A DNA stretch of 64,000 bases from an uncultured Spartobacteria bacterium. GTDB taxonomy: Bacteria; Verrucomicrobiota; Verrucomicrobiia; Chthoniobacterales; Chthoniobacteraceae. The stretch covers positions 62,001 through 126,000 of the forward strand of contig CAIRYQ010000042.1 of NCBI GenBank assembly GCA_903882875.1, written 5' to 3'. The notes below the pieces were generated by a model. That model searched no databases. It was not told the DNA's origin and worked only from the letters and a program-made list of their open reading frames with translations. Of the stretch, positions 1,180 through 23,974 are shown piece after piece; position 1 is the first letter of the stretch, and each line of letters starts with the position of its first letter. Made by a program: the position numbers and the translations under genes.

Positions 1180-1273
1180 AGGTTGATTTATCGGAGTGGA
1201 CGGAGAATCGCCAGTCGTATAGCTGGAAAGGCGGGGATGTCGAGCGGTTCCGGGATGTGCGGAGGCATCATGG

Positions 1274-1468
1274 TTGATGCCGCTCGGTATCAACCATGAT
1301 GCGTTTGGAATCAGCGTTGTTCCGATGGGAATCACCGTTGATGCCCATCCGTATCAATGGTGATGCGTTTTGGTTCATCGTTGATGCGCAGCCGTATCTT
1401 TGATGATGCGTTTTGAATCATCATTGATGCCATCCGGCATCAACGTTGATGCCCTGTGGCATCAATTT
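1274..1468. repeat. non-coding array of 21-22 bp imperfect palindromes
   Basis: Nine degenerate units start near 1274, 1297, 1317, 1338, 1361, 1381, 1404, 1424 and 1446, a mean period of 21-22 bp. The clearest units read TTGATGCC, five bases, then GGCATCAA, a dyad. Alternate units carry TGATGCGTTTTG instead, giving a super-period of about 43 bp (1338, 1381, 1424). All frames contain stops, so it is not coding in its present form. The array fills the gap between the 3' end of the gene ending at 1488 and the 5' end of the gene starting at 1179. A CRISPR is excluded because the units abut without unique spacers. Confidence 0.8.
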
Positions 1469-21951: not shown

Positions 21952-22308
21952 TTAATTTTTGACTCGGTCAAAGACATTGTGATGGTGTCTGCCTTCAGTC
22001 GCAAACTGATTGGCCCGCATATATTCGATCCTGTTAGCCGAATGGCTGCCATCGTTCCAATCAATCAATAATTGGCCGTCTTTGATATGCCAGCGCCCCT
22101 TTGCATGTTCTATGTGCATAGTGTCATCGGTAGAATCAATCGCGTATGAGCCATCCGAAGAAAATGTCAATACGCAGCTCTTGTCTCCATACCACTTGCC
22201 GACGATGAGTCTGGAAAGCGTTTTCTGATCGGGAAGCTTGTCCGCCATGGACACATTGCCGAAGGCAAGGATTGCTAGGATGGTGCAAAGCAAAAGTTTT
22301 GTGCTCAT
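21952..22308 (-). CDS. small secreted lipocalin-like protein
   Basis: 118 residues. A clear signal peptide (MSTKLLLCTILAILAFGNVSMA) is followed by IVGKWYGDKSCVLTFSSDGSY and GRWHIKDGQLLIDW, the alternating strand pattern of small lipocalin-like or META-type barrels that start GxW. Ligand and role are unknown. The composition is relatively AT-rich. It probably forms an operon with the low-complexity gene 35 bases downstream. Confidence 0.65.
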   Translation of the reverse strand: MSTKLLLCTILAILAFGNVSMADKLPDQKTLSRLIVGKWYGDKSCVLTFSSDGSYAIDSTDDTMHIEHAKGRWHIKDGQLLIDWNDGSHSANRIEYMRANQFATEGRHHHNVFDRVKN

Positions 22309-22471: not shown

Positions 22472-22677
22472 AATAGCCCAGCACTTCAGTGCTGGGGGAA
22501 AGAATGGGAAACCGAGCAAAGTCCCGTCAGGGACGGCAGAATGGCTGCCACGCTCCGCCGCGTCTGCCTTCCGGGCTGCCTTCGGCGGGCTTTCCCGCGC
22601 CGCCCGGTTCTTCCGTCCCTGTGGGACTTTGTTGTCCGGGAGCCCTGCGGGTCCCAGTGCTGAAGCACTGGGCTATT
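22472..22677. repeat. nested inverted-repeat element, about 206 bp
   Basis: The ends are mutual inverted repeats of 25 bases with two mismatches, and each contains its own palindrome: CCCAGCACTTCAGTGCTGGG at 22477-22496 and CCCAGTGCTGAAGCACTGGG at 22653-22672. Inside is a second inverted pair: CAAAGTCCCGTCAGGGACGG (22517-22536) and CCGTCCCTGTGGGACTTTG (22613-22631). No open frame spans it. The layout is that of a REP/BIME-like or MITE-like non-autonomous element; no transposase gene is in the window. Confidence 0.8.
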
Positions 22678-22767
22678 TTCATGGGGTTCCCCGTTTCCGC
22701 CAGGTTGCCGGCACCAGGGTGCGGAGGCGAGGCCGGTCGTGCCGGGAAAACGGGCGGTTCCGATTGA

Positions 22768-23606
22768 ATGACGCTCGCATCCTTTGGGCGGAAGGCTGTC
22801 AGTGGATGGAAAACGGCTTTTTCTCACGAAAAACAGCCGTTTTTCGCAATGGATGCCCTTTTGGGTGCCTCAGAGACGGTTGGAAGTGGCGCAAAGACGG
22901 TCGTCTCTGTGACAGAGTCGGTCGTCTTCCTGACAAAGACGACCGTCTTTGCGATGGAGACGGTAGGATGCGGCTCAATTCCGGCGGGTCTGGGACGAAG
23001 ACGACCGACTCTCTGACAAAGACGACCGACTTCCTGACGAAGACGACCGACTTCCTGACGAAGACGACCGACTCTCTGACAAAGACGACCGACTCTCTGA
23101 CGAAGACGACCGTCTCTCTGACGAAGACGACCGTCTTTGCGCCGGAGACGACTGTCTCCAAGCGCCGGAAATGCGTCGGCGGGGCACATCCCGGAGTCCG
23201 TGCCGGGAATGCGGTCGGCTGCATACCGGGCACGGGGCGGCCTGTGCTTTGCGCGGTTGGCATGGAGGCGCACCTTTCACCGTCAGCCCCGCCGACGGGC
23301 GGTCCGCGCCTGCAATCCTGCGAATGCGGGCCGGATTCCCCGGTGTCTCCCACGGAACCGCGCGGGCACGCTCCGAAACCGGGCGCTGGCTCTGCTCGCG
23401 GCGGGGTGGCCAAATTGCAAGGGTGCGCGGCCTTCATGCCTGCGCTCACGCTTATCCAGCGGCCGCTCGCATCATCGCCGGGCCGGGCGTGGGCGGGGGA
23501 GCCTGTGCGCGCGTCCGGGGCATCGCGCCATTGCGGATTTCAGGCGGTGTCCGGGATTTTCACGGCGCACACGCTGTCGGCGAATGCCTGCAGGTCGGTG
23601 CGGTAG
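22768..23606 (+). pseudogene. heptad-repeat open frame broken by one 20-bp unit
   Basis: From ATG 22768 the frame reads in seven-residue steps (TVGSGAK, TVVSVTE, SVVFLTK, TTVFAME). One short step near 22980-23000 shifts the frame, after which another plus frame continues TKTTDSL, TKTTDFL, TKTTVSL and runs to 23606 through non-repetitive sequence. Several reverse frames are open across the same DNA, so coding direction is not proven. There is no signal peptide and no known domain. It could be a decayed or sequencing-broken gene for a threonine-rich repeat protein, or simply a non-coding minisatellite. Confidence 0.3.
22875..23167. repeat. 21-bp minisatellite, 14 units
   Basis: Units start at 22875, 22896, 22917, 22938, 22959, about 22980, 23000, 23021, 23042, 23063, 23084, 23105, 23126 and 23147. 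The best units read GACGACCGACTCTCTGACAAA or close variants; GACGGTCGTCT and GACGACCGTCTTT units are partial palindromes. One step is 20 bp. Weaker units in the same register extend upstream to about 22791. There are no unique spacers, so it is not a CRISPR. Confidence 0.9.
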
Positions 23607-23974
23607 CTCTCGACCATATCCAGCTTGGAGAACCATTCCGGGAAGCATTGGATGGAGAGCGTGCTGCCTGCGGGTGAGGGGTTCACCTTCAGATGGACCT
23701 TTACGCCGAGGGTCCACTGGTTGCGGCGGAAGCGGACGTGAAATTCGCGCCCACCGGGCATCTCTTCGGTTTCCGTGAAGCGCGGATCCGACAGCTTCGA
23801 GCGCAGCGCCTTTGCCAACCGATCCGCTTCGGTGACGGTGTGGATGAGGATGGTCTTCTTCGCACGCCAGAGATCCGCATCCGTCATCGGCCTTCTGGAG
23901 AGGTAAAGGGCGATGGCGGCACCGCCGAGAGTCACCGCGCAGAAGCCAAGGGCAATGATGTGTGACAGGTGCAT
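23540..23974 (-). CDS. membrane-anchored hypothetical protein
   Basis: 144 residues. A single N-terminal membrane segment (IIALGFCAVTLGGAAIALYL) is followed by a soluble domain starting RRPMTDADLWRAKKTILIHT. Strand-like segments (EFHVRFRRNQWTLGVKVHLKV) suggest a small alpha/beta fold. I do not recognise the family. It follows the 39-residue gene upstream by 12 bases, so the two are probably co-transcribed. Start ATG 23974 has no Shine-Dalgarno. Confidence 0.55.
   Translation of the reverse strand: MHLSHIIALGFCAVTLGGAAIALYLSRRPMTDADLWRAKKTILIHTVTEADRLAKALRSKLSDPRFTETEEMPGGREFHVRFRRNQWTLGVKVHLKVNPSPAGSTLSIQCFPEWFSKLDMVESYRTDLQAFADSVCAVKIPDTA

What the first reader, a model, noticed from the sequence alone, without database searches (positions are those of the whole stretch)
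22875..23167. 21-bp minisatellite readable as heptad peptides in several frames
Fourteen units keep a 21-bp register with only one 20-bp step, and weaker units extend it upstream. It is read as KTTDSLT-type heptads on one strand and SVVFVRE-type heptads on the other. The repeats include palindromic GACGACCGTC cores. Such a regular array could encode a threonine-rich surface fibre, or be a DNA-level element with a period of two helical turns. The single off-length unit breaks the plus frame.
Basis: partly seen in the sequence, partly recalled or inferred. Interest (0 to 1): 0.75.

Follow-up and report, generated by a model that had tools for sequence, protein, structure and literature searches.

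The report
Dispersed 21-bp palindrome-repeat element, non-coding
The repeat is not a gene for a threonine-rich fibre but the core of a roughly 400-base non-coding element found three times in this bacterium, one of dozens of tandem arrays in its genome that almost all share a repeat length of 21 bases (two turns of the DNA helix) although their sequences differ.

Summary
The array is real: 14 units at 22872-23164 with one 20-bp step (TRF score 231; best of 300 shuffles 64). It is the core of a ~400-bp intergenic element (about 22803-23203) with two paralogues in the same genome (74% and 71% identity) that share head and tail. It does not look coding: differences between paralogues fall evenly on the three codon positions, the single-base frame break differs between copies, and there is no protein family match. 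Units are imperfect palindromes (RAGAC-GACC-GTCTY): 81% of arm positions pair, against 34-48% with the arms slid. Within-unit covariation is not above shuffles.

The surprise is genome-wide. In 1.08 Mb of this genome, 27 of 30 tandem clusters of 60 bp or more have period 21 (or a multiple). Nearly all are intergenic, with array-specific sequence, often dyad-symmetric. Relatives carry 21-bp arrays of other sequence; a Tannerella MAG carries the same dyad at seven or more loci.

Best reading: a minisatellite-bearing dispersed element, like BrickBuilt of Porphyromonas gingivalis, whose period keeps dyads on one face of the helix. Its function (phased protein sites, hairpins, or none) is inferred, not shown. 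New variant of a known kind.

The parts
22803..23203 (+). whole dispersed element (head, 21-bp units, tail); two paralogues in the same genome at G000:C121:18.75-19.15 kb and G000:C8:30.33-30.71 kb
   Evidence: own-genome search 74% and 71% identity; three-way alignment A1 shows conservation starting at GGATGGAAAACGG and ending near 23203
22803..22871 (+). head: diverged units with A/T-arm dyads (22810-22821 AAAACGGCTTTT; 22829-22844 AAAAACAGCCGTTTTT)
   Evidence: conserved in all three copies; 85% identical to the C121 copy over 59 bp, and no isolated head copies found; inverted repeat I11
22872..22976 (+). first five units, partly in the opposite (GGTC) orientation
22977..22996 (+). 20-bp unit (one-base deletion that shifts the frame); shared with the C8 copy, absent from C121, which has its own 20-bp unit elsewhere
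22997..23164 (+). eight 21-bp units of GACC orientation, consensus RAAGACGACCGWCTYYCTGAC
   Evidence: TRF 92% matches; pattern search
23165..23203 (+). tail (CGGAAATGCG...), conserved mainly with the C121 copy
1261..1465 (+). second array of the same class, unrelated sequence: dyads NGNATCA-N4-TGATGCN alternating 21 and 22 bp
   Evidence: dyad p<0.005
21952..22308 (-). left neighbour, 118-aa DUF5640-like protein (below cut-off)
23540..23974 (-). right neighbour, 144-aa protein with no family match and no match in the other nine genomes of the genus

Best explanation
This is the minisatellite core of a ~400-bp, non-coding, non-autonomous dispersed intergenic element. It belongs to a genome-wide class of tandem arrays that share a 21-bp period but have array-specific unit sequences, often with an imperfect dyad in each unit. 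SHOWN: three paralogous copies with shared head and tail; intergenic position; absence of coding signals; fixed 21-bp period in 27 of 30 tandem clusters sampled; dyad symmetry in this and several other arrays. INFERRED: units multiply and are homogenised by slippage or unequal recombination in whole-unit steps; the element spreads by copying into other intergenic sites; and 21 bp (two turns of 10.5 bp) is kept because it puts every dyad on the same face of the helix, most likely as a phased row of sites for a dimeric or polymerising DNA-binding protein, or as phased hairpins.
For: Three copies with head and tail. Flat codon-position differences. No significant period-3 variability in any array tested. 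27 of 30 TRF clusters of 60 bp or more in 1.08 Mb have period 21 or a multiple; more arrays in a further 360 kb. Nearly all are intergenic in an ~87% coding genome, with no preferred flanking-gene orientation. Dyads beat position-permuted units at p<0.005 in 7 of 24 arrays and in arrays of two congeners (L018, L152). The dyad in this family pairs 80.6% of cells against 34-48% when slid. There is no 3-bp or 10.5-bp sub-period; lag 21 stands alone. 21-bp arrays of other sequence occur in relatives, and the same dyad in 21-bp register with leader and tail at seven or more loci of a Tannerella MAG.
Against: Per-unit compensatory change is not above shuffles, and most arrays show none (W and C8 with their heads are exceptions at z 4.7 and 4.4), so the dyad may be inherited rather than maintained. 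About half of the arrays have no significant dyad. No terminal inverted repeats were seen at the element ends. No binding protein, transposase or transcript is identified. The helical-phase argument is inference: common descent of all arrays from one 21-bp ancestor would also give a shared period.
Confidence: 0.6

Rival explanations
1. Neutral minisatellite. All arrays descend from one or a few 21-bp arrays that spread and then diverged; slippage keeps the period, and there is no function.
For: Array sequences form loose families (AGAC..GTCT, ATCA..TGAT, GGGGCCC, TTGGCAA). No array at the PhyH neighbourhood in congeners, though synteny there is not kept. No within-unit covariation in most arrays. 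Flat substitution pattern.
Against: Strongly diverged arrays (L063:1024-1520, 48% mean column variability) show no off-length step over 23 units. Dyads recur in arrays with unrelated sequence more than permuted units give.
Confidence: 0.3
2. Structured RNA: the array is transcribed and forms hairpins (terminator-like, mRNA-stabilising or sRNA).
For: RNA folding z -7.0 and -7.4 on the two strands, as one long stem. One array (L053) has GC-rich dyads followed by TTTTT in nearly terminator form.
Against: Both strands fold equally well, as expected of any dyad repeat. No preference for convergent genes or a strand. No Rfam family for the array. RNA loops would tolerate indels, but spacing is rigid.
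Confidence: 0.2
3. Protein coding: threonine-rich KTTxxLT heptads of a surface fibre.
For: Open frames on both strands. In the Tannerella MAG the KTTVFxE frame is unbroken over all 46 units and third positions vary most outside one free codon.
Against: Frame broken in all three copies of this genome. Flat codon positions. No Pfam match. In Tannerella no consistent start codon, and period-3 is not significant (p=0.30). A 21-bp palindromic repeat is open in many frames by construction.
Confidence: 0.05

Closest known systems
BrickBuilt, minisatellite-bearing MITE of Porphyromonas gingivalis (Klein 2015, PMC4596501)
   Same: Tandem direct repeats without spacers, flanked by conserved leader and tail, many copies per genome, always intergenic, variable repeat number, no gene inside
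   Different: Unit is 23 nt of another sequence there and 21 nt here; BrickBuilt has IS5-type terminal inverted repeats, none seen here; here many unrelated unit sequences share one period across the genome; no reported palindromic unit in BrickBuilt
21-bp AAAGACGACCGTCTTT elements of a Tannerella MAG (JAISMO01; G474)
   Same: Same 21-bp register and nearly the same dyad; leader, units and tail repeated at seven or more loci
   Different: Leader and tail differ; no off-length units; third positions of one frame vary most
REP/BIME and GTAG/CGTC palindromic repeats (PMC3733652)
   Same: Short palindromes in intergenic clusters; Opitutus terrae (Verrucomicrobia) is rich in GTAG REPs
   Different: REPs are 20-40-bp single or paired stem-loops with a tetranucleotide tag and one family sequence; here strict head-to-tail 21-bp arrays with array-specific sequence
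PARCEL (palindromic amphipathic repeat coding elements, PMC2996958)
   Same: Tandem repeats whose DNA has dyad symmetry, scattered across phyla
   Different: PARCELs encode a 25-residue motif (75 bp) in open reading frames; here 21 bp and non-coding
Iteron arrays of plasmid replication origins (general knowledge)
   Same: Direct repeats near two helical turns
   Different: Chromosomal, dozens of unrelated arrays, no Rep gene adjacent

Membership tests
BrickBuilt-type minisatellite MITE | tandem repeats without spacers inside conserved leader and tail, at several loci | tested here: met
   three copies with shared head and tail
BrickBuilt-type minisatellite MITE | intergenic location only | tested here: met
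   gene prediction around the arrays; weak ORFs overlap two of the three copies
BrickBuilt-type minisatellite MITE | terminal inverted repeats related to an insertion sequence | tested here: not met
   no TIR pair at the borders
BrickBuilt-type minisatellite MITE | target site duplications | not tested
   borders are diffuse and no empty site was found
BrickBuilt-type minisatellite MITE | 23-nt unit of the BrickBuilt sequence | tested here: not met
   period is 21 with exact TRF support; the BrickBuilt unit sequence itself was not compared
Repeat-protein gene (threonine-rich fibre) | conserved reading frame across copies | tested here: not met
   single-base steps at different places in the copies
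Repeat-protein gene (threonine-rich fibre) | third-position bias of substitutions | tested here: not met
Repeat-protein gene (threonine-rich fibre) | recognised protein family or translated product | tested here: not met
   no Pfam match; proteomics not available
CRISPR array | repeats separated by unique spacers | tested here: not met
   units abut head to tail
REP/BIME | tagged palindromes of one family with a RAYT transposase | tested here: inconclusive
   palindromes present; the tags and a RAYT gene were not searched for
Structured RNA family | match to a curated RNA family over the array | tested here: not met
Plasmid iteron array | adjacent replication initiator gene | tested here: not met
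   neighbours are PhyH, DUF5640-like, unknown, and PSD1/PSCyt; no match to plasmids

The most novel reading that the evidence does not exclude
A lineage-wide class of intergenic arrays in which the two-helical-turn spacing of dyads, rather than any sequence, is what is selected: a scaffold on which a chromosomal DNA-binding protein assembles along one face of the helix at dozens to about a hundred loci per genome, with similar arrays of 21-22 bp in Bacteroidota and other phyla.
Probability: 0.2. Interest if true: 0.85.

Novelty: new variant of a known kind. Interest (0 to 1): 0.55.

Why it matters
Bacterial minisatellites normally come in many unit lengths. A genome in which nearly all non-trivial tandem arrays share one unit length, with unrelated sequences, points to a physical rule or a common replicating ancestor, and both are testable. 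Such arrays also break assemblies (several lie at contig ends) and create false open reading frames and false protein similarity: here heptads such as KTTVFVA, open on both strands, produced significant tblastn matches between genomes.

Tried and rejected
Surface-fibre coding: rejected by codon-position, frame and Pfam tests. CRISPR and plasmid iteron: rejected by anatomy and neighbours. Phage or plasmid origin: no blastn match in those collections; the 8 viral contigs pattern hits lie mostly in readable heptad frames or are chance, not this element. Known RNA family: only sub-threshold miRNA-like noise over the repeats. 10.5-bp or 7-bp sub-periodicity (A-tract curvature, heptanucleotide repeats): absent. 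My first impression that the diverged array L063:1024-1520 is made of covarying dyads was not borne out. Within-unit compensatory change as proof of hairpins: not supported. Orthologous-locus comparison: three congeners have the PhyH gene, but neighbouring synteny is lost, so it says little. Whole-genome download was not available.

Full report
What is there. The finding is confirmed. A head-to-tail array of 14 units runs from 22872 to 23164 with one 20-bp unit at 22977-22996. TRF scores reach 231, while the best of 300 dinucleotide shuffles of the surrounding 1.3 kb scored 64. Weaker units continue upstream to about 22803. The unit is AAAGAC-GACC-GTCTYT plus five bases: arms that mirror each other around a four-base centre that does not (GACC, or GGTC in the first units, which lie in the other orientation).

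It is a dispersed element. Searching the window's own genome with the array gave two further copies, on contigs C121 (74% identity) and C8 (71%). The three align from a shared head (GGATGGAAAACGG...) through the units to a shared tail, about 400 bp in all. The head is not found alone. Each copy lies in an intergenic stretch, though the crude gene finder calls weak ORFs over parts of the C121 and C8 copies. The element has no terminal inverted repeats that I could see.

It does not look coding. Differences between copies are spread evenly over codon positions. The one-base deletion that makes the 20-bp unit is shared by the window and C8 copies but lies elsewhere in C121, so the frame is not kept. 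None of the arrays tested shows significant period-3 variability. The heptad peptides and the two long array ORFs have no Pfam match.

It is one of many. I fetched 1.08 Mb of the 5.78-Mb genome and ran TRF: of 30 clusters of 60 bp or more, 27 have period 21 or a multiple of it. A further 360 kb gave more. By extrapolation the genome holds on the order of 100 arrays (inference). A few, such as L078, L079, L092 and L093:81-754, lie in coding sequence; the rest are almost all intergenic in an ~87% coding genome, with all flanking-gene orientations. Unit sequences differ between arrays (TCCGATCGGATATGCGGCGTT, AACCAGCCGGGGCCTTCCCCG, TCCGAGCTTTTTGCTCCGAGC and others). A second array of this kind lies in the same window at 1261-1465, with 18-bp palindromes alternating at 21 and 22 bp. 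No 3-, 7- or 10.5-bp sub-period is seen; the autocorrelation is confined to 21 and its multiples.

Dyads. Compared with arrays whose unit positions were permuted, dyad symmetry is stronger at p<0.005 in 7 of 24 arrays and at p<=0.035 in 11. Three of the seven are the paralogues described here. Two arrays of congeners are also significant (L152, L018). About half are not. For the 37 distinct units of this family, 80.6% of arm cells pair against 34-48% when the arms are slid, but pairing is no better than after dealing the 3' letters anew among units. So the dyad is a property of the consensus, and its upkeep by compensatory change is not shown. Including the diverged heads, the window and C8 arrays do exceed the shuffles (z 4.7 and 4.4), but heads and bodies are two different sequence groups, so I do not lean on this. 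Both strands fold into one long stem (z about -7), as a dyad repeat must.

Relatives and strangers. DNA search found no copy in 96 relatives, and the exact core pattern none in 387 other genomes of the phylum. A translated search found 21-bp arrays of other sequence in the same genus (G001 with many, G007, G009) and order (G041); sampled DNA added G002, G014 and G016. The G001 unit CAGACGATTGTCTCCGTGACG resembles the window family. A scan of 84,980 species genomes for the core at 20-22-bp spacing hit 40 loci, with no title that names Verrucomicrobia. Several are 21-22-bp palindrome arrays in Bacteroidota: Prevotella RUG759 with paired arrays GTGAC-N4-GTCAC of 22 bp near mraZ and elsewhere, a Bacteroidaceae MAG, and a Tannerella MAG. 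These loci were picked by a partly palindromic pattern, so they are biased toward dyads. The Tannerella MAG carries AAAGACGACCGTCTTT units in strict 21-bp register at seven or more loci with their own leader and tail. There the KTTVFxE frame is unbroken and third positions vary most, but no consistent start codon exists and the period-3 signal is not significant. I leave open whether the likeness to this element reflects transfer or convergence.

How it most likely works. Units are added and lost in whole-unit steps by slippage or unequal exchange, the element spreads to other intergenic sites, and the shared 21-bp period is either inherited from a common ancestor or held because two helical turns put every dyad on one face of the DNA for a bound protein or hairpin series. 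Head, tail, copies, non-coding character and the genome-wide period are shown; the last steps are inferred. Neutral slippage with common descent is the strongest rival.

Compared with the known. The closest described kind is BrickBuilt of Porphyromonas gingivalis (PMC4596501): 23-nt tandem units with leader and tail, 19 intergenic copies in one strain, IS5-type inverted ends, and bidirectional promoter activity in E. coli. The element works like that in architecture but is not filed as a member: unit length differs and terminal inverted repeats were not found. PARCELs (PMC2996958) are 75-bp coding repeats. Literature searches found no description of a 21-bp array class in Verrucomicrobia; the library holds open-licence papers only.

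Limits. Gene calls come from a simple hexamer model of my own. The genome is a draft, and several arrays lie at contig ends, so copy and unit numbers are lower bounds.

Noticed in passing
window 1261-1465: Second phased palindrome array, dyads NGNATCA-N4-TGATGCN with the centre alternating in orientation; a related array lies at L068:419-555.
   Followed up: partly
window 22475-22690: REP-like inverted pairs (CCAGCACTTCAGTGCTGGG / CCCAGTGCTGAAGCACTGGG and CCCGTCAGGGACGG / CCGTCCCTGTGGGAC) next to the array; both sides match Acido-Lenti-1 RNA (RF01687) just below its cut-off, and one is terminator-like.
   Followed up: no
L209:4639-4930 and L233:804-1068: Prevotella RUG759: two adjacent 22-bp arrays with the same arms GTGAC/GTCAC but different centres, repeated in opposite orientation on another contig; one copy lies upstream of mraZ.
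   Followed up: partly
L208:190-431: Bacteroidaceae array in which unit arms change from GGTG..CACC to GACG..CGTC while pairing is kept; stops in all six frames.
   Followed up: no
L144:7103-7251: Distant genome of the phylum with TTTCCAATGATTGGAAA palindromes at a 31-bp spacing (about three helical turns).
   Followed up: no
L053:9880-10166: Array of GC-rich dyads each followed by TTTTT, nearly a tandem of intrinsic terminators between convergent genes.
   Followed up: no
L062:1-252, L078:2-187, L018:1-404: 21-bp arrays at contig ends, so true array lengths are underestimated and they fragment the assembly.
   Followed up: no
L002:2120-2537: Small HNH-like ORF downstream of the C121 copy; not tested against families.
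   Followed up: no
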